Shown: positions 1 through 45,040 of the stretch, piece after piece
Numbering within the stretch: position 1 is the stretch's first letter
Layout of the letters: each line of letters begins with the position of its first letter
Origin: Holothuria scabra
Taxonomy: Eukaryota; Echinodermata; Holothuroidea; Aspidochirotida; Holothuriidae
Assembly: GCA_037179385.1 (NCBI GenBank)
Contig: CM074181.1
Location: 53,193,486-53,257,485 of the forward strand
DNA: 64,000 bases
Direction: 5' to 3'
Program-made: the position numbers and the translations under genes
Notes under the pieces: generated by a model
Databases searched by the model: none
What the model saw: the letters and a program-made list of their open reading frames with translations, nothing else
Told to the model about the DNA's origin: nothing

Positions 1-230
1 TATGGTATCATTTGCATTTTCTACAAGTTCCCTTTGTGTTGGGAATGTGGCAACTTTGTTTGCTGATATTTCTGTTGTAACATCAGTGGAATTGAAATTG
101 ATTGCTAAGAATAAGTACATTTTTATTACAAAACTTGGTTTGTGTTTACACTCTTCTTTTGATGTTGATGAGGTCATCGTTAATGAACCGCATTATTGCT
201 CATTCCTGTTTCTACCTTTTTCTTCCTCAG

Positions 231-279
231 AATCAGAAGATGAAGATGACTGGCCACCTCCACCACCTCCTTTGAAATA
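231..279 (+). CDS. Possible acidic/proline-rich terminal exon
   Basis: A good acceptor (pyrimidine tract ending TCCTCAG) precedes a phase-1 frame encoding SESEDEDD, then W, six prolines, LK and a TAG stop. The stop sits exactly where a weak donor (GTGTAT) would start, so it reads best as the end of an upstream transcript or an alternative last exon. The phase and acidic serine content match the exons of the recombinase-like gene downstream, but no join is proven. The frame is short, so chance remains possible. Confidence 0.25.
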
Positions 280-1155
280 GGTGTATTTTATGGTAAGAAT
301 GCAAGTGACGCAACTTGATTGTTTATAGACCTTCTGCATGTTTTGACAAACTGTAAGGAATTGGAGAAGCTCTAGTAAAAAAAAAATGGTTCTAATCCAA
401 ATGTTTCTTAGTTGCACTAACACTGTAAGGAGGATGAATGCAATCTTGTAAAATCAATTTTTGAATTAAATTAAATTTCAAAGAAAGATTCACTCCATTT
501 AGCAGCAAATCTTTAAGGTTGTTGAAATATTTTTGCAAGCACCAATGAAGGTGTATTGTAATTTTTGAGCCTTCATTCCACAATAGATGTAATTACAAAA
601 GCATTGGTAAAATTTTTTTGGGTTTTGTAAAGGGAATTTAGTGCAGTTATGATTATGTGTGTTGTTTCCACAATATCTCAAGGTAGGAAATATCAGTTTT
701 CTAAGTTGGCATGCAGATGCGCCATATTGAGGGGGAGAATGCCTTTGTTTTTTATGGAAGTCAAAGATCATTTGTTGGAAAGGGAGGTCAAATTCTGAAG
801 ACCTTGTTGATGTATGGCTCATTTATCTGGAAAATGCCTTAAAATTCCTACAAACTGCCTTGTAAGCAGTAGACTTATGTCTATCTCACTGGTATTAGGC
901 AGTCTTTTTGCCTCACTATTTTTGTGGATGCATTATTTCAAATATATCTGTATATAGTAAAATCTACATATAGAACTAGTAACAATATTCTACTACTCAC
1001 TAAAATAATGATCCCACCAAAATACAGGTGCTCAACACAAATATCAATATTCAACAGCAGTGACACATGACAGAGAAAGGAAAATATTTACACGAAGCCA
1101 CTAATGCAATGCTACTTTTCAACAAGTAGTCTGAGCTATGATAGGTTTTAGGTTT
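280..1155. other. No gene seen
   Basis: AT-rich sequence with no exon, RNA gene or clear repeat that I can support. If the gene starting downstream extends upstream, this is intron. Confidence 0.5.
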
Positions 1156-1393
1156 TAGAAGTTCAGCAAAGTTCAACTATCATAACTAACTGAACATGTC
1201 AACCTGGTTATGAGCCTATAAATGTTAGAGTTCCTGTTGTGAGTCATGCCAAGCTAGGTATGATGATTTACTATTGTGAAATTACACCGATGGATGTTGA
1301 GTTGAATTATGACATCTATTCATATAATTTTGCAAGTTTTCAAGGTTCATGAATTCTGCACTGGAGCTAATATCTTCATTTTCTGTTTCATAG

Positions 1394-1514
1394 AGAGGAC
1401 AGACATTGACCTGGAAGACCACAATGATGATGGTGACTCAGTTGATCATGAAAGCAGTGACAACACCTCCAACTTTTGACTCCCCCTCTTCAACCAGAAC
1501 CGAGACAGCCACTG
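1394..1514 (+). pseudogene. Broken copy of duplicated acidic exon (8-bp deletion)
   Basis: This exon copy has the same acceptor (TTTCATAG) and donor (ACTG/GTAAG) as the copy at 2503-2631, but is 121 nt rather than 129 nt. Eight bases present in both sister copies are missing after GATCATGAAAG. Inclusion would shift the frame, whereas the two 129-nt copies are symmetric phase 1-1 exons. Splice signals look intact, so it could still be included as a poison exon. That is inference. Confidence 0.7.
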
Positions 1515-1996
1515 GTAAGACAACTTGGGTATATTTGTTTTTTTGGGTCAGTTCTGCATTTAATAATTTGTTGGTATGTCAGACTTCCTAACACTAAGTG
1601 CTGCTTCAAATGATTTGCAAGGAACTCTGAGTGATAAGCTATTAGTAACAACAGCTAGTATGTATCAGCTACAGGTACAATGTTTCAGAATCTTTATCAT
1701 TGCAGTGAATGGACCTTCAGTGATTGGGATTCTCATTTAAGGTATATAAATGTGTCAAAAATTTGTAAACTATGGCAGAGATTTGACAAGTCAACTATCA
1801 TGTGTGAATGAACATTGTCACTTGGTTATAAGCCCATGAATATTGGTGTTCCTGGTATGAGTCACATGCAGATGTGATGATTGAATATGTGCAATTACAG
1901 CTACTGTATGGCTATCAAGTTGAATTATGACATGAAAGTTTTCAAGATTCTTAAATTCTACAGTAGAGCTAATATTCTTCATTATCTGTTTCACAG

Positions 1997-2125
1997 AGAG
2001 AACCAACATTGGTGTGGAAGATGATAATGATGGTGGTGACTCTGTTGATCATGAAAGTGTCTTTGCAGTGACACTGCCTTTAACTTCCGACCCCACCTTT
2101 TCAGCTAGTAACAAGACAGCCACTG
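1997..2125 (+). CDS. Acidic cassette exon, copy 2
   Basis: 129 nt, phase 1-1, bounded by TTTCACAG and ACTG/GTAAG. It encodes about 43 residues with EDDNDGGDSVDHES and a Ser/Thr/Pro-rich second half. It is diverged from copy 3 but keeps frame and both splice sites, which suggests selection on the coding part. It can be skipped or included without changing frame. Confidence 0.65.
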
Positions 2126-5100
2126 GTAAGACAACTTGGGTATATATGTTATTTTTGGTCAGTCCTGCATTTAAAAATTTGTTGGTTTGTGAGACCTCCT
2201 CAGTCTCAGTGTGACCTTAAAAGGTTTCCAAGGAATTGTAAATGATAGGGTTTGTAAATCATGGCAGAAGTTCAGCAAAGTTCAACTATCATAAGCAACT
2301 GAACATGTCAACCTGGTTATGAGCCTATAAATGTTAGAGTTCCTGTTGTGAGTCATGCCAAGCTAGGTATGATGATTGACTGTTGTGAAATTACAGCGAT
2401 GGATGTTAAGTTGAATTATGACATCTATTCATATAATTTTGCAAATTTTCAAGGTTCATGAATTCTGCACTGGAGCTAATATCTTCATTTTCTGTTTCAT
2501 AGAGAGGACAGACATTGACCTGGAAGACCACAATGATGATGGTGACTCAGTTGATCATGAAAGTATCTTTGCAGTGACAACGCCTCCAACTTTTGACTCC
2601 CCCTCTTCAAACAAAGCCGAGACAGCAACTGGTAAGACAACTTGGGTATATTTGTTATTTTGGGTCAGTTCTGCATTTAATAATGTGCTGGTTTATTAGT
2701 CTCCTTCATACAGAAGGCAATTTTTAATGTTTAACAAGGAACAGTGAAAGAAGGGATATTAAAAAGTGGTTAAGGTGAAGCAGTAAGAACATATGAATTA
2801 CAGATTTGGAGGCTCTTCCTTCAGATCATTGAGCTGGATTGGGCTTAAGTGATTAAAGTTCCCATCAATTTTTTTAATGAAGTGTACTTGGAACTTTGGG
2901 AAATTTTGAAACTGCAATGGGACAATAGTGCTGGTAATGAAAAAAAGCCTTTTGTAACATTTCATTGTGATTTTATGTTTTGTAGTTTGTGACAATCCTC
3001 TTTATTCACAATTTTTAATGCCTTTGTGGTATTAATTATTTTAGTTTTAATCAAAGTGTCATATTGCATACATGAGCCGGCTGGTGTACTCCAGTAGGAG
3101 CAACTTTCATTGTACCAATGTACTAAATTTCATCAATTATCAATGAAAAACTTTGCTTTGCTGTGTTGGAGGGTCTTGTACCTTACATATTCTTATTCAA
3201 AGTAATTCATTCATTTTCAGTTGGACGCAGTACATCATACCCTGGGGTTACAGTGCCAGTTTATTCGAAGAATAACGGTTCCAGAAGTTACAATAAGCTG
3301 CAGTGCTGTTTTGTCTGTGACAAACTGGTTAAAACAAAAATGGCCCGTCACCTCTATACTCATGGAGAAACCGAGGCAGTTGTGGCAGATGCTGTGAATG
3401 AAAAAAACAAGGAGAGCGGTGCTGCCAAGCTGGAGGCATTAAGACTCCTGGGAAACTTCAACCATAATGTTCAAGTTTTAAAGGAAGGGGTTGGGGAACT
3501 GATTGTTGTGAGAAGATCACGTCACGCTAAGGTAGCAGAAGACTACCTACCATGTATAAAATGTTATGGATTTTTTGAAGTAACTGAACTTTGGAGACAT
3601 ATTTCACAATGCAAGACAGTGTGTAGGCCAGTTAAAATTGGAGCATCAACAGAAATGGACACAGACGAACTTAGAGATACTACTCTAACTGCTAAATGCA
3701 GGATGCTGTTAAGTGGTGCCATTCATGGCAAAAATTCCCTTTTTGTGAGTGACAGTTTTAAAGACCTCAGGAGAGAAGTTATCAAAACAATGAGGGACGA
3801 TGAGGTAAAGAAGTTGGTGGAGGGGGATGAGCTAATTTTAATGTATGGCTCTCCCCTTTTGGAAAGACTTGGATCTCTGAGGAGGCATGTAATATCTCAG
3901 AGGATGAGACAATTGGCCAGACTGGTTATAGCATTTCATCAGGAATGCTCAGAAACAAGTTTGATGAACATTATTGATCCTAGCCTCTTTGACGATGTCA
4001 TTCACTGCGTAAGAGGTATTTGCAGGGATTCTGCCAGTAGAACAATTTCTGGGGTTCAAATGTTCCAGTACCCTTCATATGGCCTACATGTTGGGCATGC
4101 CCTTGTGAAATGTTGTATGCTAAAGCGTGGTAGGGCAATTAGACTGAAAGATAGTAATATGAAGGAAGAGGCAGTATTTTTTCTAGAGCTATTGGAAGGA
4201 CAGGATTGGACTGCCAAGGTATCTTCTCCTGCCCTGCAAAGCCTTAAGGAAAGATTATACAACTCTGCAGATGAATTGCCATCTACCTCAGATCTGCAGA
4301 AATTGAATGGGCATGCTGCACAAAAGTTGCATAAGACCCAACAGAAGTTAGTGGAAACACCAAATGAGTACACCTGGAGGGAACTCTCTTTTGCAACTTT
4401 TGTGCTCGTCACAACTTTAAACAAAAGGAGAAGTGGGGAAGTTGGAAAGATGTCTTTGGAGTCATATACGCAACGACCAGACTGGAGAAAATTTAGAAAC
4501 AATGAAATGGAGAATGCCCTCAGTTCCATGGAACTGAAATTAGCAAACAGGTATGAAACAACTGTGATGACTATATCAGGATAATCTGTATTCTTTAAAG
4601 AGAGGGTAAAGCTTAAAATCAAATGGACAAAGTATGAAATAGTTCCATACATGAGCTTAAAAGTAGATGTTGTGTTTCCCTAGTCAATTTAATTCTAACA
4701 TTGGAAGACTCAAATTTTGCTGCATCCAGGGTTTGCGCTCACCCCAAACTACAATTCTTGTAAGGGTTAACTGAAATTCTCAACTGGCTCAGCTCTTTGA
4801 TTTAAACAATGCAAAGAACCAAAGCTTATATTACACAGCATTAACTGTACTGAGAGTGTTTTGGTTATACACATTGAGCATTCCTATACTCACCTTGAAG
4901 CAGTAAACGGAGATTGTGTCTGGGTGAGGATGAATTTCAGACAATTGGGGGCGGGGCCTAACTAAAATGGTTAAGAGAATTGGTACTGTTTGGGCTGAGA
5001 GAATTGGACCTTTGACTCCCTGACATTTCTTCTGTGTTGACCATGTAATAAATACAAGAATGAAAAATTCGTTTAGTAGGCCATGACTCAAATTAAAAGA

Positions 5101-8100
5101 GGAGCACAATTATCTGAACTGAGAGTTACCAGTACATAGACAATTTTTTTCCAAAACAGTTTTCATTGGGTCTAAAGACTGGACAAAACTAAAAAAAATT
5201 AGCAAATACATATTGTTACTTTTTGTAAAGCTATGGATTACAAGCCCAACCAACAGAAGGATGGTTGAAAAAAGAATAAACATTTTACCATGCAACACTG
5301 ACTCTCAGTGTTAATGTTATTTTTATTTTTCAGCCAGAACTTAGTGCAATGTATTTTTTGTTATTTCAGATTTGACATGGTGCAGCTACCTGGCAAAAGA
5401 GGACGTAGGGTACCATTACTCTTGAAGCCAGAGTGGGTTGAAGCAATGGACTCTCTTGTGGAGCTGAGAGACAAGTGCAATGTTACAAGCAAGTTCTTCT
5501 TTGGTGTACCAGGAAAATCTGGTCCAATTAACTCCTGGAAGGTGGGTAACCACTTACAGTATACACTTACAAACAGAAGGTGTGCTTAATTTTAGGTGCA
5601 GACTGGTCACAAATGGTTTCTGGCCAATCAGACTGCCGGAAATCAAAAGAGGTGTTTATGAATACTTTACTGCAACCAGAATTATTATTAACAACAAACA
5701 TTTTTAAGACACCTCACATTATTCATTTTTCACCCTCCTTATGGCTGTTATTTTATAAATGTAATGCATTATGAAGCAAAAAATATCTAAATACAACAGG
5801 TCCTGGTTCAGATGCTAAGTGATCTGATAAAATGAGCAATTGGCCATAGGACTATTAGGTATTTATTTACTGCCCTAAACAGTAAAACAGAACTATAGGG
5901 CTTTTCATGTGATCTGCAGAAACTCACAGCAAATTAGCAAGTATCACTGAACAAGACATGTGCCTTAACCAGTCGTTGTCCTTGATTTGGTTAGGTGATT
6001 ATAGCCATTTCAAGTAAGATAGATTTATAGTGATTTTCTGATGCTAGGATAACAGAGGAATATCATAGCAAGCTAATATGAGGTCAAACATTCTGTTTTA
6101 CAACACCAAATCTCTATCAGCATCATTTCATGTATGTGTAATGTGCATCATTCCAATACCAGAACTTTATTAGCAGTTCCTTTTAAATGAACCTTGTGGA
6201 ATACACAAACCAAAGTATATTGCTATGTATGAATTGGTTCTGTTTGTCCATGATCCTGATTCCCTTTGAATGTACTGTATTGTTCAGTAGCCTTTACATC
6301 ATCAAGTCACGGTGCTTTCAAGCGATATGTGTAGCCTCAATTTGCATTTAACCTAAGGTGATAATGTATTCTTTATGGCATCACAAGTTGCCATACAAAC
6401 TGGCCAAATTGCTACACATCCAGAAATGTGTAGCACTTTTTGGTGTGCATAACTATAGGGTTTTCAGTGATTTTACTACAGAAGGAAACAAAAATCTCAA
6501 AACTACAATGTATAATTTGAAATCTAAATTATTCCCTGCTTGTTTGGAATTCTGACTGAAGTATTACAAGTAGGGAGTTTATTGTTTGAAGAACATGGAA
6601 AAGAAGCAAAAAGACCCAAAAGACTCCTGTAGTTTTAATCACGCATGTAGTTGACCCCTTTTCAAATACATAATTTTAAAAGAATTGCAGAACACTTATT
6701 TCCGTGGGATGAGGAAAGAGGACCGATTAGTTTGACAAGTAAGAAGATAATCTTTTGCCTGCAAATCTTTTACTGTGCGTGTCAATCATTCTTTTTGGAA
6801 ACTTCAAGGAAGGGTAATTCTTTGATGTGCCTAGGAGCATTCAATTTAAAGTTAGCAACATTGGAGTGGAATGACCTGTCAGTGACTTTTTTGTGCACAT
6901 GCCTTTGCATTTTTGGATCTAGGTAAGGTTTGCACCGAAGGATTTAATTATGCAATTATGTAATAATATGCCACAAATTTCATTTTTGTGATCTTGAGCC
7001 AAGTTATGGATGAAAAGCCATTGTAGCCTTGCATTTTGTCTTCCTGTTCTTCAGGTAATTCGTGACATGGCAGTTGAAACTGGTTGTGAACGACCGGAGC
7101 TTATTTCAACAACAAGGATGCGGAAATACACAGCCACTGTATTGCAGGTATGGTTTTGGTTAAAGTTGTATAAAGCTGATCATTGGTACCCATTACTGGT
7201 ATGAATAAATCATCAATTTTAATCCAATATACAGTACTTATGAGGAAATCTGACTAAAATGCTGATATTTTGTTACCAATGCTGCTTCTTGAAAAATGTT
7301 CCTTTGTTTGGGTTTTGTATGCTATGATAGAAGAAAGCAGTACTCTCATGATGGCATTTGTTGGTGTGTGCACATATGTTAGTATGCATTTGTGTATTTA
7401 TAACACTCTGCTTTTTAACATTGTTTCTCAAAAAGGGAATTACAGATGATCCATAATGTCCTCTAGGGTCACCTGGTACAAATTTGAAATCATTGTTAGT
7501 ACTGTCTCAGGATATGAAGCTTGAATGAGTTTCATACTGCATGAATAGATGCTTTAGAAGGAGGAACTTGTTGCTTTTAATGAAGGTCAAAGGTTACCTA
7601 AGTTTACTGGGTTCAATTTCCAAAAATAAAATCTTGTTAGCATGGTAACTCAAGGCAGGAATTTTAAATAGATTTCACACATAGTATGTATTTGCATTGT
7701 GTTGAGAGGATGATACCTAACCTTTTGGTGGAGGCCAATGGTCATTTAGAACTTCTTGTTCACACATTGTCTCAAGCCTATACCCATGTATTATTTTCGA
7801 TGGAACAGTGGGAGCCATCACCTGAATAGGTCTGTTAGTGATGTTTTGTCGTTGGCTGTTATTAGGAATTTAAATTTATAGGTTATACCAGCTGCTGATG
7901 CTATTAGTGCAGCACTGTATTTAAAATATTAGAAGTTCACTTTTCTCAAGGTAAGTATGAAATGTATATCTGGATTAACAAAGTTTGTTCATTTTTTGTT
8001 CCAGTTGCTGAGCCTCCGTGAAGGGGAACTGGAATGGATGTCCAATCACTTAGGACACAACGTTGACATCCATAGACTGTCCTACAGACTTCATGAGTCA

Positions 8101-11100
8101 ACAATTGAATGTTCCAAAGTAGCAAAACTGCTGATGGCAGTTGAATCAGGGACAATGGCCAAGTATTCAGGCTGCAGTCTAGAGGATCTGGATGTAAATG
8201 GTGAGTACATGGAAAAGGGTAATGACCTTAAACAACACACAAACAGGAATATGTAGTGTCAGCGTGGTAAAAACCGGTTAGTTTATGTAGGGTTTCAAAA
8301 ACGGTTCAAGCCCAAGTTAGATTTCAAATACATTGAAATACTGTGCAGTCCTCCCCTTAGTCACCTCTTTAAACGGGTTAGAAACCATGTGGTTATTTCA
8401 TTAATGGCCTGATAACTCTCATTGTCACTGGAAAATTTCAAGCATCATTGAGGGGCACAAGATATAGAATTGGGAAAATTGTTATTAGTGTCACAACTGC
8501 AAGGTTCCTTGTATGGTGCTAAGGCTGCCCAGTGTTAGCTTGTGGTTCATATCTGACCCGACCTGAACTTTATGTTGGCTTTCGTTTGACTGTTACAAGT
8601 TGGTTGGAGTCAAAAAAAAAAATTCAACAATTTGAGTGTCCCAGTTGTCCAACTTTTCTTGATTATGGAACATGGATCTAGTTCATATGCACTGTAAAAA
8701 TGTTTTCTATTTGGAAGGGCTGCTAACTTCTGAAGGCGGCACGAGTCACAAGTAATTTCTTTCCAAGTGAACAGAATAACTTGATGATAAAGGCCATCTT
8801 TTCCTGATGATGTTATAAAATAAAACATTTGCCTTTTATTCTTAGATATTGACATCACCCTGGATAATGGTGAAGACAGTCCCTCTGAATCTGAGGAAGA
8901 TAATGAACATTCGGAAGGTGAGCACACAGATGACTTCTGTTTTGAGCTGAAATTTTTAATACCCTTGTTGTTATTCAGTGCATGATTGATGAAACAAATC
9001 ATAGTTAATGATTGGAAAAATAGCTTGTATTGTCCAGTAATAAGTGCGTTTATCTGTTTGACTTTTTGTGAAGTTTTTGTGTGGCATATCACAAACTAAA
9101 ATTCAGTGTCAAATGAAAAAGAACTGTACATGTATGTAACTCCCTGAAATAATGTTACATTACCTGCCCTCGAAAAATTTGGCAATGCACTTGTGAAATA
9201 TGCAGAGTGCTTAACAAGTCAACCTATTTTTGAGTCACGGAAAACCACATTCCACTGCATTATACAACTACTGTTGAACAATATTAAAGGAACAGGCTTG
9301 TAACACAGAAGTTTAGATGAGCAATCAAAGTTGATGGCCTTTTCCCAGCCAAATATCCTGCAAAGTACAGTAAATATAAAACTGACCTGGCTGAGAAAGA
9401 GTTTAAAAAAAGTGTTGTACCCTTCACTACTCCTTAGTTGATGCCTATGTTTTTACTGAACATACTGAACATACTTAGTTCCTGCATTAGAAGTATTGCA
9501 ATACCATTCCAATTCAACCCTTTCCTTTAAGGGGAAGTTTAAACAAAAATTTAATTTTCATATTTGAAAGAGGGACAAAATCTTCAAAGTGTGGTGAAAG
9601 TTCCATTCAAATCCGACATGTATTTCTTGAGATATCAGTAAATGAAGTAAGTAGATTTGTGGTCAAAAGTGCGTTTGAGGGCAGCAGATCTTACATCACT
9701 TCCTCACATTGTCAGGGAATGCTTTGTTCCCCTTTGTTTTATCAGACTGTTGTGTTGACCTTGAAGTTAATAGGAGTATGACCTCCCTTTGGGAGATGCA
9801 AAGTTTGTTAAATTCTCATGCCATTTATGCAATCACATTTTAACAATATGGGATTGTTGAGGAGAAAATCCAGTATAAAATTTGAAGGAAAACAAAAGAC
9901 TGCACATAAATTTGGGGATGTGATGTCATATGTACTTGCTTCAAGTTCACTTTTGTTGAAAATGAGAAAACTTTACCTATTCATATCTTGAGAACCACAC
10001 ATGGGATTTCAATGCAAATTTCACCAAAATACTTAAAATAAGCACCTGTCTTACATGCCAAATTCTGTTGTGACCTCAAACCCTTCTTTTAAATTAAACA
10101 CATAGCAGAAGCACCACAGAAAAGTAAACTCAGCAGCAACATCGGTAGGAGCAAACGAACAAAACCATGGATTGAAGAAAGTGATGAAGATGAAAGTGCC
10201 AATGATGGTAAGTATGACAAGCACTATAATGTAAAGAGAGCATGCAGAAAATAAGGATGGAAAAGGTTGAAATAAATGCAACATGCATGGGTTAGAAGGA
10301 TAGATATAGTCTAACAGCCCAGCTTGTAACCATTGGTTTAAGTTGAGTAGGCCATGGCTTTTTGTCCAGTTGTGGCTCACTGGCTTGTTCTCCCTACTCC
10401 ATTGTTTAGGCTGCCCACCAAACACAATGGAACAATGGTGACATGCATATTTTATTGTTTGTTTTTATGAATAAAATGAAGGCAGTGACTGACTGCTCAC
10501 CTGACCTAGTAGTACATGTTTTAGTGATGAAACAAGCAGGCTGGAAAGTTTAAAGGTTTAATTGGTACTGCTTCTAAAGAGCACAGGTATATAAAATTTG
10601 CCAGTTCAGAAGTAATCATCATTAGTGATCATTGCTGCCTCCTCTGTTTGCAATGAAAGGAACTTTGTTTCTGGTTATGCAGTGACATTGCGTAGTTAAA
10701 TTGAAAGCATTTTTTGTCTTGATTGAGTTTTTAGAACAGGTTTGAATGAACCTTGCATTTCTGCACCAGCCCATCATTTCCCGAATTTGGAGGCCCTATG
10801 GTTTCTTCTCCAGCAATAATTCCAGAAACATTTTCTCCCTTTTTCCATTATCCCTAAATATGGAAACACATCACAACGGGTTAAGAAGTGACCATGACTA
10901 GGACGTATACTAAGTGCCAATATGTGATGCAGGATTTCTCCCACTGAATCCTCTCTTTTACATTAAAGCCCCAGCAGAAGTTTCACAGAAACGAAAACTT
11001 CCAAAGACATGCAGCAGCAATGCTGGTAGGAGCAAACGAACAAAACCATGGATTGAAGAAAGTGATGAAGATGAAAGTGCCAATGATGGTAAGTATGAAA

Positions 11101-14100
11101 AGCACTATAATGTAAAGAGAGCATGCAGAAAATAAGGATGGAAAAGGTTAAAATAAATGCAACATGTGGGTTAGAAGGATAGATATAGTCTAACAGCCCA
11201 GCTTGTAACCAGTTGGTTTAAGTTGAGTAGGCCATGGCCTTTTTTCCAGTTGTGGCTCACTGGCTTGTTTTCCCTACTCCATTGCTTAGGCTGCCCACCA
11301 AACACAATGGCACAATGGTGACATGCATATGTTATTGTTTCAGTTTTTATGAATAAAATAAAGGCAGTGACTGACTTTTTAACTGACCTAGTAGTACATT
11401 TTTTTGCTGATGAAACAAGCAGGCTGGAATTTATAGGTTTTGCTCCTAAAGAGCACAGATATATAAAATTTGCCAGTTCAGAAGTAATCTTTATTGGTGA
11501 TCACTGCTGTCTTCTCTGTTTGCGATGAAAGGAACTTTGTTCCTGGTTTTGCAGTGACATGTGTAGTGAAAAATGAATGCATTTTCTCTCTTGATTAAGT
11601 GTTTAGAACAGGTCTGAATGAATCAATTGCATTTCTGCACCAGCCATCGTTTCCCGAATTTGGAGGCTCTATGGTTTCTCCTCCAGCAATTATTCTAGAA
11701 ACTTGATTTATTTCTTTTCTACCACAGAAAAATGTTCTTTTTTTAAATGAGTATTGCTCATATATTTATGAGCTCATGCTCTGGGTGCGAAATGAGCATT
11801 AGCCTTGATGCTTTCCTTGGGTGTGTGAATATGAGAGTCATGTCTCACATTCTGTGAGGTGTAATTGGCGCACATTCAACTTAACCAAGCAAAGCTGGCA
11901 AATAGAACCAGTCAGAAGTGCCTGCTCGTGTTCATGTACAAATATGCACAAGTGCATGTGTGGTCATAATATCTATGGCTAGCAAATGTACTAGTCCTAG
12001 TTGTGAGAGCTAGTTGTTTCTGCGTATCACTCTAACAGCAGGTGTGTTTTAGAATAACTGGTCGCTGGTGGGATCTAGTGAGCTGTAACTGATCTTCTGC
12101 AGCAGTCACTGTGTAGCTTTGGTTTTTGAGTCCCAATAAATGGAGACATATTTGTTCATTGTCTGCTTTGTGTGGGACTATTCAAATTATCTTGCTTGGG
12201 TTTGAGACATATTAAATATAAAATATTCTTGTGGTGTTGACCTTTTTTACATATTGTATTCCCTGGGCAACAGACATTTTCTTCCTTTTTCCATTATCCT
12301 TAAATATGGAAACACATCACAAGGGGTTAAGAAGTGACCATGACTAGGACGTATACTAAGTGCCAGTATGTGATGCATGATTGCTCCCATTGAATCCTCT
12401 CTTTTACCTTAAAGCCCCAGCAGAAGTTTCACAGAAACGAAAACTTCCAAAGACATGCAGCCGCAATGCTGGTAGAAGCAAACGAACAAAACCATGGATT
12501 GAAGAAAGTGATGAAGATGAAAGTGCCAATGATGGTAAGTATGACAAGCACTATAATGTAAAAAGAAAAGAGGCATGTAATAGGTAAAACGCCAGTGCCT
12601 TATACTTGGGATACTTAAACACCCTTACACAGCTGCATGATCGATTCATATACACAGTTTTTTACTGACAATGAATACAAGTTTTCATAGCTGCACCTAA
12701 CTTTTTTTTTTTTTTTTTTTGCATTGGACATATCAGGCACATAGACTGCAAGACAAACTTGTATTACATAACATTGCAGTTATGGTGATGAGTACTAAGT
12801 ATTAATTTTCAGAATGTATGTCACATGAAGGAAACTCTGACAGTTTTGAAATATAATATATATGTCCCATAATATTAAGTCTCATGATGAGTGGAAAAAC
12901 AATTTTGTCTGGTGAAGGTCAATGGTGGGTTAGGGTCAGTCATCACAAGTCAAACTCTAAAACCATAGGAACCATTAATAGATGTCATACTTTGTTTGCT
13001 GATGCAGTTTGTTAAAAGTAAGTGTGTTGTTATGGTGGAAGTTATCTGAAATTATTATAGTTCAAAGTGTGAAAACTTCATTGACAAGATATCTCAAGTA
13101 AGAAACAATGGACAGATCACATTCTTTGCACCATTTTGAGAGGTTTAACCTAATGTTTTGGTAGAGGCCAAAGGTCATCTAAGGTCACTGTGGTCTCTGC
13201 AGGGTAAAACCCTGAAACTGTTGACTGCAATTTCTCAACATAGGAAGCTTGTAAAGATGGTACACTTAGTATAGAGATGTGTTATAAAGACAAAAAGTTG
13301 CCTGTTTTCTACTGTGAAGGTCAACTTAAGCCCCTGGGATCAAATTCAGGGTAGGAAACTTTAAAAGATTTCTTGCTCAGTATGACATAGTTATCATTTA
13401 AAGAGTAGGCCTATATCCGATTGTTTTTTGGTGAATGTCAGAAGTCATTAGGTCAGAGGTCTTAAACAAAATTTCTGAAGAATCCCCAAGATTGTTGTAT
13501 GGGGTCACAAGAAACCCAAAAGCAAAATATTCCACTAATACCCAAAGTACATAACCAGAGATCAAGCAAAATTGCCAAAGACTTCTCTATGACATAATGT
13601 TGGTTCACCAGGGGCCAGTCAAAACAGCAATTTTCCTAAGGATTCCCTAGATCAAATTCAGACACAAAATTGTTTATAAAACATTTGACCATTGACTGAA
13701 AAGGAGACATCATGACATTATTTGGAATGGAATATTTGTCATCTCCTTTTTGCTTTTTGGTTGACCATTGACTGAAAGGGAGACATCATGACATTATTTG
13801 GAATAGAATATTTGTCATCTCCTTTTTTTGCTTTTTGGTAGCAATTATGGTCGTTGTTGTTGTTTTCAAGACTGTTTTGTTGACCTTGAAGTTAAGGATC
13901 TCACTGTAAGGAATGAAATGAAAAATTTTGTTAACTTCTTATGCCACTTATTCCATCACATTCTGATAACACGGGATTGCTGAGAAGGAAAGAAGCTGAC
14001 CATCAGTGTGCGGATATGATGATATAAGTTCACTTTTTGTGGAAAAGGTGACAAACTTAACTTGGTCATATCTTGAGAGAACCATACTTTCAATTTAAAA

Positions 14101-14497
14101 GCAACTTTCACCAAAATGCCTAAAATAAGCACTCGACAACAAATTAAAACCTTTTTTGCAAACTTAATTCTTTTTTGATATTTGTAAATAGAAGGCAGTG
14201 CACATGGTCATCAGTTATGTTAATGTACTGTACAGAAACATCCTTTAATTTTAACTTAATTGCTTGATAATTTCAGAGGAAAGGCTGCCAAGGAAGGTTG
14301 GGAAAAGAACAAGATGGTCTGCAGAAGAAATTAAAATTTTGAGGACAGCCTTCAGCAAAGAGTTCAGCACCAGAAACTTACCAAGTTTTTCAAAAATTAA
14401 GAGAGTAATGGTAATGTACCCCATACTAAAACAAAGGAACCCTGCTTCAATAAAAAGCAGATTTCAGTATCTGCTAAAGCAGAACTACAAAATATAG
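1997..14497 (+). CDS. Spliced zinc-finger / tyrosine-recombinase / SANT gene (5' partial)
   Basis: Exons 1997-2125, 2503-2631, 3221-4550, 5370-5541, 7055-7147, 8005-8200, 8846-8917, 10106-10207, 10969-11088, 12415-12534 and 14277-14497 join with consistent phases (1,1,2,0,0,1,1,1,1,1) and GT-AG borders, giving about 893 codons; no initiator was found. Order of parts: acidic duplicated exons, two C2H2/C2HC-like fingers, tyrosine recombinase core, acidic tail with an SIM-like motif, three tandem basic/acidic exons, then a Myb/SANT-like domain ending in TAG. The recombinase signature is R-S-G-E box I, a GK hairpin lysine, box II arginine, and LGH followed nine residues later by Tyr. Family knowledge: this fold cuts and rejoins DNA through the Tyr. 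Cryptons carry it without a reverse transcriptase and have been domesticated in animals. I infer a nuclear DNA-binding protein; catalysis is unproven. Confidence 0.85.
2503..2631 (+). CDS. Acidic cassette exon, copy 3
   Basis: 129 nt, phase 1-1. It encodes TDIDLEDHNDDGDSVDHES and a Ser/Pro-rich stretch. IDL followed by acidic residues resembles a SUMO-interaction motif. The donor GTAAG joins in phase to the large exon at 3221, with the junction codon GTT (Val). Confidence 0.75.
2632..3220 (+). other. Intron
   Basis: Intron between the acidic cassette and the large exon. I see no nested element or RNA gene. Confidence 0.6.
3221..4550 (+). CDS. Large exon: two zinc-finger-like motifs and start of recombinase core
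   Basis: 1330 nt, acceptor TCATTTTCAG, donor AACAG/GTATG, phases 1 to 2. Near the start lies a CX2CX10HX3H motif (about 3307-3363), then a CX2CX11HX3C motif (about 3553-3612). A long, mostly helical-looking stretch follows, compatible with a core-binding domain. At the 3' end FVLVTTLNKRRSGEVGKM matches recombinase box I (usual form GLRxSEL), with the candidate catalytic Arg at 4429-4431. The frame runs past the donor to a stop at 4584, but phase agreement with the exon at 5370 (junction codon AGA) supports splicing at 4550. Confidence 0.88.
4551..5369 (+). other. Intron
   Basis: Starts GTATGA and ends TTATTTCAG. Nothing else recognised in it. Confidence 0.6.
5370..5541 (+). CDS. Recombinase core exon with beta-hairpin lysine
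   Basis: 172 nt, phase 2 to 0, acceptor TTATTTCAG, donor GGAAG/GTGGGT. It encodes FDMVQLPGKRGRRVPLLLK, which fits the hairpin of tyrosine recombinases (typical GKGxKxRxVPL); the candidate catalytic Lys is at 5395-5397. The rest, EWVEAMDSLVELRDKC and FFFGVPGK, fits the linking helices before box II. Confidence 0.85.
5542..7054 (+). other. Intron
   Basis: 1.5-kb intron ending TTCTTCAG. Short open frames inside it have no recognisable domain. Nothing else is supported. Confidence 0.55.
7055..7147 (+). CDS. Recombinase box II exon
   Basis: 93 nt, phase 0-0, acceptor TTCTTCAG, donor TTGCAG/GTATGG. It encodes STTRMRKYTATVLQ, which lines up with HxLRHTFATxL of tyrosine recombinases. The box II Arg is at 7121-7123. 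The usual first His of HxxR is replaced by Thr (7112-7114). This position varies in the family, so the change weakens but does not exclude activity. Confidence 0.85.
7148..8004 (+). other. Intron with diverged interspersed repeat
   Basis: The part at about 7440-7800 shows repeated phrases (GGTCAAAGGTYA, then CAATTTC, then an AAG-rich part and CACAYATAGTATG) in loose units of about 130 bp. The same family recurs near 13,070-13,510 and 30,480-30,850. Confidence 0.45.
8005..8200 (+). CDS. Recombinase box III / nucleophile exon
   Basis: 196 nt, phase 0 to 1, acceptor TTGTTCCAG, donor AAATG/GTGAGT. It encodes EGELEWMSNHLGHNVDIHR then LSYR. The LGH His (8056-8058) and the Tyr nine residues on (8083-8085) have the exact spacing of the recombinase box III His and nucleophilic Tyr. 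The end, KLLMAVESGTMAKYSG, matches the helix that follows the Tyr. Confidence 0.88.
8201..8845 (+). other. Intron
   Basis: Begins GTGAGT, ends TTATTCTTAG. Nothing else recognised. Confidence 0.55.
8846..8917 (+). CDS. Short acidic exon with SUMO-interaction-like motif
   Basis: 72 nt, phase 1-1, donor GGAAG/GTGAGC. It encodes DIDITLDNGEDSPSESEED and NEHSE. A hydrophobic I-D-I-T-L core followed by acidic residues and serines is the usual form of a SUMO-interaction motif, with the serines in casein-kinase-2-like context. Binding is inference from motif shape. The exon can be skipped in frame. Confidence 0.75.
9527..10092 (+). mobile_element. TTAA-flanked MITE, copy 1 (piggyBac-type, non-coding)
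   Basis: A block of about 560 bp bounded by TTAA, starting AAGGGGAAGTTTAA and ending ACCCTTCTTTTAA. It shares most of its length with 46294-46881 (reverse) and 48146-48703. It has no open frame. It ends 13 bp before the acceptor of the exon at 10106, so its terminal CCCTTCTTTT is part of that exon's pyrimidine tract. Confidence 0.8.
10106..10207 (+). CDS. Tandem basic/acidic cassette exon, copy a
   Basis: 102 nt, phase 1-1, acceptor CACATAG, donor GATG/GTAAGT. It encodes AEAPQKSKLSSNIGRSKRTK then PWIEESDEDESAND. Relative to copies b and c it has lost 12 nt inside and uses an AG 6 nt further downstream; both changes keep the frame. GRSKRTK could serve as a nuclear-localisation signal (inference). 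Confidence 0.75.
10208..10968 (+). other. Intron with minus-strand SINE fragment
   Basis: Holds a SINE fragment at about 10297-10430. The rest is duplicated with the intron after copy b. The sequence before the next exon is shared with the one before copy c. Confidence 0.6.
10297..10430 (-). mobile_element. SINE fragment (tRNA-derived family)
   Basis: The reverse complement matches the body of the SINE at 32396-32643: AGCCACAACTGGA, GGCC then CTCRACTT, and the tail ending CATCTA. The 5' tRNA part is absent. The same insertion is present at 11182-11310, so it came before the local duplication. Confidence 0.75.
10969..11088 (+). CDS. Tandem basic/acidic cassette exon, copy b
   Basis: 120 nt, phase 1-1, acceptor ACATTAAAG, donor GATG/GTAAGT. 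It encodes APAEVSQKRKLPKTCSSNAG, then RSKRTKPWIEESDEDESAND. The KRK and RSKRTK clusters beside an ESDEDE tract suggest a nuclear, CK2-phosphorylatable segment (inference). Confidence 0.8.
11089..12414 (+). other. Intron with 565-bp insertion
   Basis: Contains the duplicated SINE fragment and an insertion at about 11706-12270. I could not identify termini or a target duplication for the insertion. Confidence 0.5.
11182..11310 (-). mobile_element. SINE fragment, duplicated copy
   Basis: Same SINE fragment, at the same distance after the exon, as at 10297-10430. It was carried by the segmental duplication and did not insert independently. Confidence 0.75.
12415..12534 (+). CDS. Tandem basic/acidic cassette exon, copy c
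   Basis: 120 nt, phase 1-1, nearly identical to copy b (CSRNAG in place of CSSNAG), acceptor CCTTAAAG, donor GATG/GTAAGT. It joins the last exon in phase (junction codon GAG). Confidence 0.8.
13685..13838. repeat. 76-bp tandem pair with hairpin-forming ends
   Basis: Two head-to-tail copies of a 76-bp unit beginning TTGACCATTGACTGAAA, differing at a few bases. Within each, AAGGAGACATCA and TTTGTCATCTCCTT can pair, so each unit can fold. Confidence 0.75.
13863..14135 (+). mobile_element. Diverged partial TTAA MITE
   Basis: Resembles the 3' half of the 9527-10092 element (TTGACCTTGAAGTTAA, GGGATTGCTGAGAAGG, CATATCTTGAG, TTTCACCAAAATGCC) with many differences. An older member of the same family. 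Confidence 0.6.
14277..14497 (+). CDS. Last exon: Myb/SANT-like domain and stop
   Basis: Acceptor ATAATTTCAG, phase 1, ending in TAG at 14495-14497. It encodes about 73 residues: basic RLPRKVGKRTRW, SAEEIKILRTAF, a loop, then ASIKSRFQYLLK. The W...EE...L start and final aromatic helix fit a Myb/SANT-like helix-turn-helix. By recollection, not search, similar C-terminal domains occur in uncharacterised fish and invertebrate proteins with the same N-terminal fingers. Confidence 0.8.
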
Positions 14498-15028
14498 TCA
14501 TTGAGTTCACGTAGGGTACATAAACAGAGATGCCGACTAGTATGGTTTTCCAAAGTTTGTACTGAATTTGGTAGCAAGTAGAGCACACCCTTTGTTCAGT
14601 TCAAATATGGGGATGTGATTTCTAAAGCACCATAATAAGATCTGTATTAAAAATCACAATGGAAGTACAGTAAAAGTGTGACTGGAGTGGGAGACTGTTC
14701 AGTAAAGGTCACAAATATTATCATGACCCAATCTGAGCTGATTGCAGTAGAAACTGAAGTAGTTCTTAGGCAACACTGGATTGCACATCCACATGTATTT
14801 ATATGGTACACCCTGTAGACTAGTATTAAGCTATTGGAGTATCATGCTCTTGTGTGGGGCTGGAACTGAGCTAGTTCTACAGTTTACTGTCCATACAGCG
14901 CGAGTAGATGTATTATCCGTACTTTGCATACCATGATGGACTTGAGGGAACATGGCCCATGAACTGCTTATTATGGATAAGTCTGGACATCATTATTTGT
15001 GTGAAAAATAAGTAATGATGAACAAACC

Positions 15029-15034
15029 AATAAA
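15029..15034 (+). terminator. Candidate polyadenylation signal
   Basis: AATAAA about 530 bp after the stop codon of the recombinase-like gene. It is the first canonical hexamer I noticed in that 3' region. A 3' end here is inference. Confidence 0.35.
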
Positions 15035-15962
15035 GTAAGTGCATGAGTTTTGGAACATGTAGTATTCAATGTATGGTTATTATGTGGAGAAAGCTGCATT
15101 GGTAGCTAACGCAAATCCAGCCTAATATGTGACGTTAGTTGGTCTAACCTTCTGTGCTTTAACTTGGTTTTATATGAACTTGAAAATTAATTTTAAGAGA
15201 CTAGGCCTGACATGTTCAAAATACTCTTTTTCGATACAAAAAATACTGGAAATCATGTTTGAAAGTTGTCATCTTGGCAAGACAAATGTTACTTACAGGT
15301 AGAACATTTCTAGAAGTATTGGAGTGTAGTTGTCAGTCATTGGGCATCACAAATTTAGAAGTTTCCAAGAGAAGAACATCACTGGAAAAATATTCTTGTA
15401 GTAAAATTTAGTTAAAAGGTAGGAAGGGAACTCAGCTTTAGGATACATATGCAGTAACAGACAGTTTCTAATAATATTTATTAATATGTTACTCATGTAA
15501 TGTTTTTCTAAATTTGTAATAAAAGTTCTCTTTTTATTTCCTGGTAAGCTGCAGTTGCAGTCACATTGAGAATTTAGAACCTTCAAATAGATGAAACCGA
15601 GCCTCCTCACATCATTGAATCACATGCCATGCAATTAAAAACAGTTATATTTACAGTACACTGCGCTTCATGAAACCCTCATGGGCTACATGAAACTTAC
15701 TTTAATGGTTGCAAACATGGTCATGTGTTTAACATGCAGTGGAAGTGTGTTTGTCTATGTTGGTGATGCTTTCTGACGCAATACCTCAAAAAATAAAACC
15801 AACAGTTCAGGTTATTGATATGTGGACGTCTTTTTCATAGGAAGAAGCCATTTATGTTTTAACTGGAGTTCAACATTAATTTGGATCAGTCTCTGAAAAA
15901 CTTGTTAACAGGATATCTTAAGGTAGATGGCTTGGATAAATTCCATACCTGTTGTGTAGATC

Positions 15963-16681
15963 AGAGATTTCCAGCCTGGTAGATGCATCACTCTGGTGGG
16001 ACATTTTGCAGTTTCTAGTGGGACATGCAGTTTGTCCCACATCCCAAACTCTTTGGGATAATTTCTTTGAAAGAAAAAATAATGGTATATGGTCACCCAA
16101 CTGGAATATCCAACTGTAATATAGTGTTATACCTTTACATTATGTAATGTAGAGTGAACATTTCTAAATGTTCTGTAAAAAGATGAAGATGAACATGTTT
16201 ATTTTATTGTATCTGTAGTAGGCCAGTATCAGAATGATCAGTGATATGGGAACATATATCATGTTTGTAGTGATAATACTGTGATCTATATAAAAATAAG
16301 ACAATTTTGTGAGCATGCTTTTATAGCAAGTGAACTCCATCACAAATGACGGCCCTCGGGTTGGTTTGAACTCAAGTTTAAAATATTTTATTTATTGGTG
16401 TCACAAAATTGGTACACTATGAAAGTATTAACTATGTAGCCTATCCTACCATGGTTGCAAAATATTGTTCCATAACAACCAAATCGGGATTTGCTACAAC
16501 CAATAGTTTCTGATAATTTGATTTCAGAAATCGCCACTTTACTTTTTGTTATGCTTTTACTACATGTGATTTCAGATATCACATATAAGATTATAAGCGG
16601 AATACAGTGATGCATATGCCTTACGTACATTTATGAATGCCAATTTGGGGTGACAAGCTAAGAAAGGTTGCAAACTCCTGG
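15963..16681. mobile_element. Possible hAT-type non-autonomous element
   Basis: The left end CAGAGATTTCCAGCCTGG and the complement of the right end CAGGAGTTTGCAACCTTT resemble each other and the CAGNGNTTTNCAACCT termini common in hAT elements. The flanking 8-mers (GTGTAGAT, GCTAAGAT) agree only partly. No transposase. Confidence 0.3.
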
Positions 16682-18588
16682 CTAAGATGCTTTACAGTAG
16701 GGTCATGGGTTAAATAGTGAAAACCTTTTTAACAAGACAATTCTAGGTAGAAAGTTTGAATAAATTTTACACTTACTGTGTAGATGCGTCACAGTAAGAG
16801 AAAGAAAGCTGTTGTATTTAATGGAGCTCACAGGTCTCGGGGGTCAACATGAATCAAAAGCTGAAAACCTCTATTAAGTGTATAAGTTAATGAGTATGTG
16901 GAGTTGCCTTGCTTATAGCGAAGGGTAGTATTTTAGAATAAGTATTGCATTTTGTATTAACTTCAAAGGATGTAGAACACTGTATGTGATTGATGTTACC
17001 TTCCTTGATTTCATTTATTTGTGATGATGGTTGATTTCATTGTCAACATTTTGCTGTTGTCATTTTCAAAATGCATGTAGGTCAATTAAAAGCCATTTTA
17101 CTTAGGTCTGTATGACACCGGGAAGTGTCCTTGCACCTAACCTGTTTTCAAGTAGGAATTGAAGCTGTAGGTCAATTCTAATAGGGAATGTGTACTGTCT
17201 GAACTGAAGGTTGTTATTCTGACTGTTTACTGATGAACTCCATATAGGAGACAATTTTTCAGTGTAGGGTACTTAGGTCTGTATGACACTGGGAAGTGCC
17301 CTTGCATTTATACAATTTACAATGAGTTAAAGCTCAGTATCATTATACATAGATACATAGGTACACATTAACCAAAAAACAGAAGTTTTCTTTTTTCCAA
17401 AAAAACCTCTGATTTGAGTGTCTGTTCACTCAAATCATACTGTCACCCTCTGTTCGTAGTGCTGTTTTCTGGCTTAATTGTAAAAAAAAAAAAATGCAGC
17501 ATTTTTTCTTTGAAGATTCTTAATTTGTCCTCCCATTGTTCGATTGAGCAGCTAAAACGATCTGCTGATATTCTTTCCATGACAGTTTTTTGTAATTGAC
17601 TTTGGTGAAACAGTTGGCCTACTGAGATATTACCATGTGTTATTCAGTTGATATTATTCTTTGCCTTGAAGGACAGGGTTAATGATAATCCAATTTTCAT
17701 CCAGTCCTCCTTTTTTGGTTAAAAATCACCTTGCATCAGTAAGAATAAGAATGTTCTTGAATTTTATGTTTATGAATACTTTAATCTAATTGAAACTTTG
17801 TCTTTCTTTTTGAGTACAGTTAATTCTATATTTTATATTATTGTATTTTACCTCTAAAACTTATTGCACGATTCTATAAGTGGAATATAAATTTTAATTG
17901 CCTGCCGAAACTGTATTTCTCCTTTACCTCTGCGCAATAACATTGTGTTGTACTCCGATAATTTATGCCTCTTTGCCCCGTAATAGAGAAAGTTAGATTT
18001 AGATTTCGAGCATGCACATTTGCAAGATGCACAATCCAATCGAACCGCCATTTGTGTAGAGCCTTTGGCAGTAAAATGGGCCATAAGGAAAATCACCCTT
18101 CAGTAACAGATCTCCAACGAAATTACTTCATTTAGTTTCAGGCATACGGTAAACCTCTTAACCCCCCTCCCTTCTGGATAGGCCAATGATTAAAGTACGA
18201 AGTCTAAACAGTGGAAAATTCATTCTATAAGAGATTTGTTTAAAATCTACTTCCTATACACGAGTAATCCAACACAGTCAGCAAATGAAAACCATGTAAA
18301 CTACATTGAAGCAATTCCATATGTTAGATGAACCCGCGAGGGGTTTTTTGAGGCTAGGATGTCTGCTCGCCCCAAAATCCTGGAGTCGCGACCTTCTGCC
18401 GGGGAAGATATTTATCTTTCGATTATAGACTAGTAAAACAGTTTGATCTTCCTGAAAATATTTTTTGTTCATTTTGATTTCAATAATTTTATTTTTTTAC
18501 TTTTTTTACACCTATGCTGTTAAATAAGCCTTTCTGAAATCAGTCTGTGAACAAGCTATACATTGTATGAATACAGATTTTCTGACCG

Positions 18589-18688
18589 NNNNNNNNNNNN
18601 NNNNNNNNNNNNNNNNNNNNNNNNNNNNNNNNNNNNNNNNNNNNNNNNNNNNNNNNNNNNNNNNNNNNNNNNNNNNNNNNNNNNNNNN
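18589..18688. other. Assembly gap (100 N)
   Basis: Exactly 100 N, the usual placeholder for a gap of unknown size. It interrupts the BEL/Pao element within integrase. Confidence 0.99.
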
Positions 18689-21600
18689 CCCCACCGATAA
18701 AATTGGTGCCGTTATCGGAAAATACTACCTCGGGATCATCCTCCCTCAACTCAATGGGAGTCACCCTAGCAGTACCCCATTTACTTTTGTACTGGCGTAG
18801 CTTATCTGGACCGTGCAACCACCTGCGGCTGTCTAGGTCGGAATACGAATGCTCTCTTGTAAGAAAGTCGGCGGGGTTAGCCTTAGTATCTATATGGAAC
18901 CACTGACCGGGTTCGCTGAATTCTCTGATCAGACTTACCCTGTTAGCTACAAAAACATGAAACCTGCGACTTTCATTGTTAATATATTTCAAAACGATCT
19001 CTGAATCGGCCCAAAAGTACGACTGAGCAAGTTCTAAATCTAATTCCCGCTTTAACAGGGCGTCAACATTGACAGCTAAAACTGCGGCTTGTAGTTCCAA
19101 GCGTGGTATGGTGCATGCCTTTAAAGGCGCTACCTTGCTCTTGCTCATAATTAAGTTTACATCAATCGCGCCCGATTTGTTAGTACAGCGAACATAACTG
19201 CAACAGCCATATTCTTTAGAACTAGCGTCTGCAAAATGGTGGAGTTCGATAGCAGCATCATTGTGCACCATGGGTTTGATACAGCGGGGAAATCTCAGCT
19301 TACTTACGGAACTTAATGATTTTACCCAACAATTCCAAGTAGTCTCAATGTCCTCGGATACCCTCTCGTCCCAGAGCAACTTGCGGGCGGTGGCCTCTTG
19401 GAAAAGTAATTTACCAGTAAGCACCAAGGGACCTACTAAACCCAAAGGGTCAAAAATCGAGGAAACCGTACTAAGCATTTTTCTCCTCGAAAGCAACCCA
19501 CCCATATGGCGCTCTACGTCAAAAAAGAATTCATCTGGAGAAACCAACCATTTTATACCCAAAGCTCTACTCTCAGTCTGCTCCCCAAACTCCCGAATCT
19601 CCTTAGCCCTACAATCATCGGATACTTCAGATAACAAATCTTCATCATTAACAATGAATTTAGTTAAGTTAAATCCGCCACGACTAAGGACCTTGCGTGT
19701 TTCTCTGATAATGGTTTTGGCACATGAACTTGACGCAACTGAGCTAAGGCAGTCGTCTACGTAAAAGCAATCATATACCGTATGCTTAACTAGGGGATCG
19801 ACGTAGCGAGAATCAATAACAGTTCTCCTGAGGGCATACGCAGAGCTGGATGCGCACCATACTCCACCAAATAAATGTGACGTCATTCTATAGTAACATA
19901 ACCGACCATTAGCGTACCACAGAAATCTAAGCGCATCTCTATCCTTAGCTGGGATTTTGACTTGGTTGTACATGGCTTCAATATCAGCTTGAATGGCTAT
20001 ACTATGTTGCCGAAACCGCAAAAGGACAGGCAAAAGTTTGTTAATCATATCGGGGCCTTGCATGCAGCGATCATTAAGCGACTTTCCTTTGAAGGCACAC
20101 GCACAGTCGAATACTACCCTCAGTTTGTCCGGTTTCTTATCTGAAAATACAGCATGATGAGGGAGATACCAAGTTCTATCAATGGCAAACAACTCACTCT
20201 CTGGGACCTGTTCTGCGTAACCTTTCTCCAAGAGTTTCAATATCTCAGCATTATACCGATCGTACAGATTGTCCCTTACTAACTTCTTGTGCAATTTATC
20301 CAACCTTGATTTAGCTACAATGAAATTATTCGGCAAAGGCTCTGACCTATCCCTCCAGGGTATGGGGAGTTCATAATGACCATCAACCTTTCTATGTTCC
20401 CTATCCCACAGGTCCGTAACTAATTTATCCTCCCGTGACCACGAGGAAGATTCTAAACCCTCGTTTTCCAGTTCCCACAAACGAGCAACATTATCTTGAA
20501 TAGGTGAAGACGATATGAAATTAGAAATCACCTTGCGGCTAGGTACCTTACCTGGGGAGCGCCCATTGACACACCAACCGAATAAGGTACGAACGGCATA
20601 GGGTTCCCCTGGTTTGCCATGTCTGACCTCTAGTGGAATAAGGGCTTCGGAATTATCTTGCCCAATTAACAAGTCAACCTTAACATTGTCACCTTGATAC
20701 CCCGGCAAAGGGCCAACCCCACGTAAGTGGGGATATGACTCTGTCTCAATGTGAGAATTCTTAATGGGTATCTCTTCAACCACATACACTGCAGATAACT
20801 CTAAGGTCTCACCCGACTGAGAGGACAGCGTCAAGTCCACAATTTCGGACTTCTGAGTACCTGAGCTATTTAAGGTCCTAAGCTCGAACTCATACGATCT
20901 ACCTGTAATCCCCAGCTGTCTAACTAAAGCGCGGGAGCAGAATGAATCGCTCGATCCACTGTCCAACAAAGTGAAAGCCTTGCACAAATTGTTTACAGTC
21001 ACCTGAACTATGGGCATATGTGTATCTTTATCAGGGAAGAAGCTAGCATTTGACACATGGACTTCAAGTGGAGTAATTGAAGTATTGTTGCAGTGAATAT
21101 ACTTAGTATGCTTCTTGCCACAACCAGGCACAGCACAAACACAGTGCTTACCACAATCATCGGTACTGTGTGAGGCAAGGAGGCAATTGTGACACAACTT
21201 GTGAGGAATCACGAGATCTAATCTTTCCTTAGGGCTCATTTGCTTGAAGTTATTACAGTGCCATAAACGATGTGGTTGACTACACAATACGCAAGGCGAC
21301 TCAGCGTTGGCATACGAACCACGCTTCACGAATTGAGATCCTTTGTCATTAGCCTGCGCAGTGGCTCCTGAACTGGCTTCGGATAGGGAAGCCGAATAAT
21401 TATCGGACGAGGCCTTTTGTTCCCGTTTGGGTCTCTCTGAGCGTTTATGATACGTACTCCCGTAAACGGGGTCATTTACTTCACTCGCAATAACACTCGC
21501 AAACTCTACTAATTCTTTGAATATTGGATAGGCATCATTAGCCTTCTTAGCTTTAAGAGCACGCTTTTTCCATTTAAGTTGTACGTAGTTGGGGAACCTG

Positions 21601-45029: not shown

Positions 45030-45040
45030 TGATCCAAACC

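What the first reader, a model, noticed from the sequence alone, without database searches (positions are those of the whole stretch)
1997..14497. Spliced host gene with a near-intact tyrosine recombinase: possible domesticated Crypton
Ten splice junctions agree in phase and rebuild one protein with zinc-finger-like motifs, a recombinase core and a Myb/SANT-like end. The core is divided by three introns, yet the Arg (4429), Lys (5395), box II Arg (7121), LGH His (8056) and Tyr (8083) all keep family spacing. A mobile element would not normally carry such introns, so the sequence points to domestication. Domesticated Cryptons in vertebrates have mostly lost catalytic residues; one that keeps them could cut DNA in a programmed way. 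The activity is inference.
Basis: partly seen in the sequence, partly recalled or inferred. Interest (0 to 1): 0.92.

Follow-up and report, generated by a model that had tools for sequence, protein, structure and literature searches.

The report
Intron-rich animal gene encoding tyrosine recombinase
A genome that looks like a sea cucumber's carries a gene, split into many pieces, for a protein that resembles the enzymes phages use to cut and rejoin DNA, with its active site almost whole; it belongs to a large animal family for which I found no description and whose other members in the same genome include copies that look mobile.

The parts
1394..1514 (+). Third copy of the acidic exon (D1), frame broken by an 8-nt deletion against D3; probably not used
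1997..2125 (+). Acidic exon D2, phase 1-1
2503..2631 (+). Acidic exon D3, phase 1-1
3221..4550 (+). core1: two zinc-finger-like motifs (C115, C118, H129; C197, C200, H212, C216), core-binding part, box I Arg at 4429
   Evidence: fold from relatives
5370..5541 (+). core2: catalytic Lys at 5395
7055..7147 (+). core3: box II, Thr at 7112 in place of His, Arg at 7121
8005..8200 (+). core4: LGH His at 8056 and nucleophile Tyr at 8083
8846..8917 (+). acidic linker exon
10106..10207 (+). repeat exon r1
10969..11088 (+). repeat exon r2
12415..12534 (+). repeat exon r3
14277..14497 (+). last exon, Myb/SANT-like domain and stop codon; AATAAA at 15029 is a candidate poly(A) signal
1..15999 (+). The part in the window of an 18.9-kb block (window -2890 to 15999) that has a 98.3% identical copy on contig C22

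Best explanation
The window holds one copy, probably truncated at its 5' side, of a host-resident gene for a large nuclear protein: SET domain, a tandem array of acidic repeats, two zinc fingers, a tyrosine recombinase, a short repeat region and a Myb/SANT-like end. It descends from an animal-wide recombinase family that also has mobile-looking members. Likely working (inferred): zinc fingers, core-binding domain and Myb end bind DNA or chromatin; a recombinase tetramer brings two sites together; Tyr644, helped by Arg489, Lys538, Arg609 and His635, attacks a strand, makes a 3'-phosphotyrosine link and rejoins, so the protein could cut and rejoin host sites or act on related mobile copies. In the full copy the SET domain would mark chromatin. 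Shown: exon model, fold in relatives, residues, selection between the copies, the copies themselves. Inferred: DNA target, activity, role of SET.
Against: No transcript or synteny data. Neither model is of the window protein, and both are least sure where the catalytic Tyr lies (P0002 blocks 741-760: pLDDT 38 and 56; P0010 block 371-380: 66). The gene exists as two dispersed copies plus a decayed relative on C1. The SET exons are tied to the gene by position and by the Lineus parallel only. Selection between near-identical copies does not tell a host gene from a recent element. Orthology with the Diadema and Amphiura genes against the crinoid gene is rejected (p 1.9e-7), so no single vertical history is shown.
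Confidence: 0.6

Rival explanations
1. The gene is an intron-bearing mobile element: a large SET-recombinase transposon that moves by excision and reinsertion, and the C3 and C22 loci are two insertions.
For: An 18.9-kb block 98.3% alike on two contigs with unrelated left flanks. In the same genome another branch of the family sits at seven loci 99.4-99.8% alike over 8-10 kb. Other members carry extra N-terminal domains (Ulp1 protease in P0041, E 4e-19; SET in Lineus). Two Misgurnus members are 96% identical and their longest contigs differ. Multi-exon recombinases are published in endogenous nimaviruses.
Against: The C3 copy begins at a (TA)n run about 40 bp behind what on C22 is an acidic exon, and lacks the upstream array and SET domain, so it looks like a truncated piece and not a precise insertion. 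The right end on C22 is an assembly gap, so an end there is neither shown nor excluded. The amplified loci belong to a far branch and have an unbroken catalytic part.
Confidence: 0.28
2. The protein is a domesticated DNA-binding or chromatin factor whose recombinase domain no longer cuts, as proposed for DUF3504 genes.
For: Box II His is Thr in 36 of 40 relatives that cover it; the domesticated animal recombinases of PMC3212892 lost the active site. SET, acidic repeats and Myb suggest chromatin work.
Against: Tyr, both Arg, Lys and the third-box His are kept in 34 of 36, which a pure binding role would not need.
Confidence: 0.3
3. The C3 and C22 blocks are two haplotypes of one locus, one of them misplaced by scaffolding (not exclusive of the other readings).
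For: 1.1-1.7% divergence is plausible for heterozygosity; the block ends at a 100-base gap on C22.
Against: Left of the block, 37 kb of C3 and 71 kb of C22 share only repeats 75-81% alike.
Confidence: 0.35

Closest known systems
CryptonA/CryptonI transposons of animals (Kojima and Jurka 2011, PMC3212892; abstract, sections 3, 5, 8 and passages seen)
   Same: Eukaryotic tyrosine recombinase, in animals including echinoderms
   Different: Those have no C-terminal domain; here zinc fingers, a Myb-like end, many introns and, in the C22 copy, a SET domain. No Crypton sequence could be compared
DUF3504 genes (KIAA1958, KCTD1, ZMYM2/3/4, QRICH1, WOC; same paper, passages)
   Same: Host genes with a recombinase-derived domain
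   Different: Those lost Tyr and the second Arg; here both are kept, and Pfam lists no DUF3504 match
Multi-exon recombinases of endogenous nimaviruses (PMC10871703; sections 10, 11, 15 and passages seen)
   Same: Recombinases related to ones with a zinc-binding and a SAM-like domain; introns
   Different: No sequence compared; viral genomes; five of seven key residues found in the zinc-binding group
XerH, Cre, lambda integrase, topoisomerase IB
   Same: Fold of core-binding and catalytic domains
   Different: About 7-16% identity; none of the accessory domains seen here

Membership tests
Tyrosine recombinase superfamily | Catalytic-domain fold | tested here: met
Tyrosine recombinase superfamily | Arg-Lys-(His)-Arg-His-Tyr active site | tested here: met
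   R, K, R, H, Y present; box II His is Thr
Tyrosine recombinase superfamily | DNA cleavage through a phosphotyrosine | not testable with these tools
   needs an assay
Animal Crypton | No C-terminal domain after the recombinase | tested here: not met
   Myb-like C-terminal exon (under Pfam's cut-off); description from PMC3212892
Animal Crypton | Sequence kinship to CryptonA or CryptonI | not tested
   no Crypton sequence was at hand
Animal Crypton | Mobile unit with defined ends | tested here: inconclusive
   left end of the duplicated block looks like a truncation, right end is an assembly gap
DUF3504 host genes | Pfam DUF3504 match | tested here: inconclusive
   no match for the 893-aa protein at E up to 10, none listed for 13 relatives at E up to 1; a profile can miss distant kin
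DUF3504 host genes | Loss of catalytic Tyr and second Arg | tested here: not met
   both kept
DIRS/Ngaro-type retroelement | Reverse transcriptase with the recombinase | tested here: inconclusive
   none recognised by eye among the ORFs of 60 aa or more in window 1-18000; no profile search of most of those ORFs
Domesticated host gene | Purifying selection | tested here: met
   pN/pS 0.36, 13 nonsynonymous and 10 synonymous changes, one-sided p 0.015; does not by itself exclude a recent element
Domesticated host gene | Fixed syntenic position across species | not testable with these tools
   no other animal genome was held

The most novel reading that the evidence does not exclude
Animals keep an old family of tyrosine recombinases with nearly intact active sites, fused in different lineages to chromatin domains (SET, LEDGF-type integrase-binding domain, Myb); some have become host genes that cut and rejoin chosen DNA sites in a programmed way, while others still move as large elements in the same genome.
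Probability: 0.15. Interest if true: 0.95.

Novelty: new variant of a known kind. Interest (0 to 1): 0.72.

Why it matters
The domesticated animal recombinases of PMC3212892 have lost their active site. A selected, intron-rich gene that keeps it, with a SET domain beside its fuller copy and recently amplified cousins in the same genome, would let one test whether animals use tyrosine recombinases on their own chromosomes, and shows a large family that Pfam does not recognise. In two echinoderms (crinoid Anneissia, sea urchin Diadema) relatives carry a LEDGF-type integrase-binding domain.

Tried and rejected
Pfam and NCBIfam on the spliced protein: a weak Myb match (E 0.018) and one chance match. 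Profile of 38 relatives against PDB sequences: best E 0.008, then sigma factors at 0.044; no recombinase among the 10 listed. Viral structure library: no match at E 0.001 or better, though the best named rows are integrases and Vlf-1. Scans of viral and of prokaryote contigs: 28 pattern stretches each, no relative. Integrase-binding-domain exons were sought in the window and on C22 and not found, so that fusion is not claimed for this gene. Grouping the window, Apostichopus, Diadema and Amphiura genes against the crinoid's: rejected. 'Introns mean domestication': rejected. Print: ten searches of a library of open papers showed no description of this family in the listings; that does not prove absence. 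A PANTHER entry for SET-domain proteins that may hold some members is recalled, not checked. dN/dS against Apostichopus or P0003 was not possible (proteins only). The protein searches scored only the candidates sharing most words. Rows left out: P0038, P0052 and P0054 from the census of 77; P0034, P0035, P0038, P0039, P0052, P0054, P0056 and P0058 from the first tree's 58. Later trees used 33 of 77, 8 of 77 and 19 of 77 plus three own loci, each with the window. Two questions stayed unanswered because the genome machine was busy: where else SET lies beside a recombinase, and whether the window's right flank has a second copy.

Full report
Observation. Eleven exons between 1997 and 14497 have AG/GT borders and agreeing phases and give 893 residues and a stop. 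Introns are 377 to 1742 bases. The five residues named lie at the stated bases. The acidic exons (D) and the r exons before the Myb end are local exon duplications of phase 1; the first D copy (1394-1514) is broken.

What the protein is. Pfam and NCBIfam see only a weak Myb domain. A search found 39 proteins, two more brought the total to 77; two searches were capped. Named members come from sea cucumber (Apostichopus; also a chimeric prediction in Holothuria, P0038), sea urchins (Diadema, Strongylocentrotus), brittle star (Amphiura), crinoid (Anneissia), corals (Acropora, Montipora), fish (Misgurnus, Solea), beetles and an ant, nemertean (Lineus), flatworm (Macrostomum) and scallop (Pecten): seven phyla by recalled classification. 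The best hit, Apostichopus, is 70% identical over 357 residues, so the genome is probably a sea cucumber's (inference).

Active site. Of 74 aligned proteins (77 less P0038, P0052, P0054), 36 cover box I, box II, His and Tyr; 34 of these keep R-K-R-H-Y. Exceptions are Solea (box I Arg to His) and Callosobruchus (Ile in the Tyr column, in a cut-off C terminus). The box II His column is Thr in 36 of the 40 that cover it. The second zinc motif is nearly invariant (C 34 of 34, C 35 of 35, H 34 of 35, C 35 of 35); the second His of the first motif does not align.

Introns. In 26 of 58 relatives the ORF stops aligning at window residues 529-531, the core1-core2 junction. All 26 come from contigs without NCBI annotation (sources), so I read this as a shared intron into which the ORF runs; AG|GTAA read in frame gives Arg-stop. 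In six of them (P0045-P0049, P0053) the tail suggests a donor one codon later. Apostichopus stops at 587 and P0012 at 618, the next two junctions. In the own genome 5 of 88 matches to the catalytic part start at that same junction and run to its end (two on C1, one each on C5, C8, C13); three of them have a core1 match nearby on the same strand (C8, C1, C13). Introns are therefore old in this family and say little about domestication.

Copies in the genome. The own genome (G000, 1.19 Gb, 31 contigs) gives 94 matches to the core1 ORF and 88 to the catalytic part; these are matches, not genes, and lower bounds. Twenty-seven of the 88 span query 3-186 or more in one piece. One group occurs at seven loci on C6, C7 (two), C10 (two), C11 and C12: the 21 pairs are 99.4-99.8% identical over overlaps of 8-10 kb, and I did not reach the ends. 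Its ORF is 827 aa at three loci, 628 at three, and has a stop at C6. Equal scores hint at two more such groups (C14/C14/C18; C1/C10); DNA not compared. In a tree the seven-locus protein sits with Misgurnus (85/84, long branches), away from the window gene.

The window gene has one near copy on C22: 98.3% over 18.9 kb (window -2890 to 15999). On C22 the copy ends at an assembly gap; on C3 it begins after a (TA)n run, about 40 bp behind what on C22 is the donor of an acidic exon. Left flanks share only repeats. On C22 the gene goes on upstream: 18 acidic exons in all, 17 intact; 15 lie outside the shared block, all intact, and three inside, one of them broken. About 4 kb before the array are two exons of a SET domain (Pfam E 2.1e-17, model positions 1-105). 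No SET piece was found in 94 kb of C3. So the C3 copy seems to lack the 5' part, or to use another. A decayed relative lies on C1 (74-86% in its pieces, broken frame).

Selection. Between the C3 and C22 coding parts there are 10 synonymous and 13 nonsynonymous differences: pS 0.0173, pN 0.0062, ratio 0.36, one-sided binomial p 0.015, without correction for transition bias; introns 0.0110. In a neutral simulation no stop arose in 16 of 1000 runs at 8% amino-acid change (about the window's own branch to P0003, 0.074-0.077) and in 112 of 1000 at 4%. Both favour selection on the protein.

History. Trees put the window with Apostichopus and P0003 (100/100) inside an echinoderm-rich clade (100/99, four of its nine rows unnamed besides P0003), and with Lineus in a wider clade (100/99). 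Diadema and Anneissia carry an N-terminal LEDGF-type integrase-binding domain (Pfam E 5.4e-6 and 2.5e-12), alike to each other (E 6e-7). But holding window, Apostichopus, Diadema and Amphiura together against Anneissia is rejected (p 1.9e-7), so the window gene is another line of descent and this fusion cannot be carried over to it. An all-echinoderm clade is not rejected (p 0.40).

Reading. The best-supported view is a host-resident gene drawn from a family with mobile members, under selection, with an active site that could work. Against a precise mobile unit speaks the truncated C3 copy; for mobility speak the dispersed copies and the amplified cousins. Function is inferred.

Comparison. 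The paper on animal Cryptons and DUF3504 genes (PMC3212892; abstract, sections 3, 5, 8 and passages) says animal Cryptons have no C-terminal domain and that the host genes lost Tyr and the second Arg. The present gene fits neither. The nimavirus paper (PMC10871703; sections 10, 11, 15 and passages) reports multi-exon recombinases related to zinc-binding ones; kinship was not tested. In a sea cucumber genome preprint (PMC13228809; passages) Crypton occurs once, recombinase and integrase not at all.

Noticed in passing
L026-L032 (C7, C7, C10, C10, C11, C12, C6): Seven loci 99.4-99.8% identical over 8-10 kb, each with a recombinase ORF of this family (827 or 628 aa; a stop at C6); a recently amplified large element whose ends were not reached.
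   Followed up: partly
C22:780323-791283: Eighteen acidic exons (mostly in 345-bp exon-plus-intron units), 17 with intact 129-nt phase-1 exons; the number may vary between animals.
   Followed up: partly
P0041: Relative grouped with coral Montipora in the tree, with a Ulp1-type protease domain before the recombinase.
   Followed up: no
P0002, P0059: LEDGF-type integrase-binding domain fused to a recombinase in a sea urchin and a crinoid.
   Followed up: partly
P0038: Holothuria protein named BRCA1-like that joins part of this family's N-terminal region to a BRCT-type domain; perhaps a faulty prediction.
   Followed up: no
window 18540-22517 (-): Long ORF that reads like a BEL/Pao-type retrotransposon polyprotein (by eye).
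   Followed up: no
window 42532-45903 (+): Pieces of a LINE-like element with endonuclease and reverse transcriptase (by eye).
   Followed up: no
window 23368-23927 and 50842-51668: Two arrays of what looks like the same 65-bp satellite unit.
   Followed up: no
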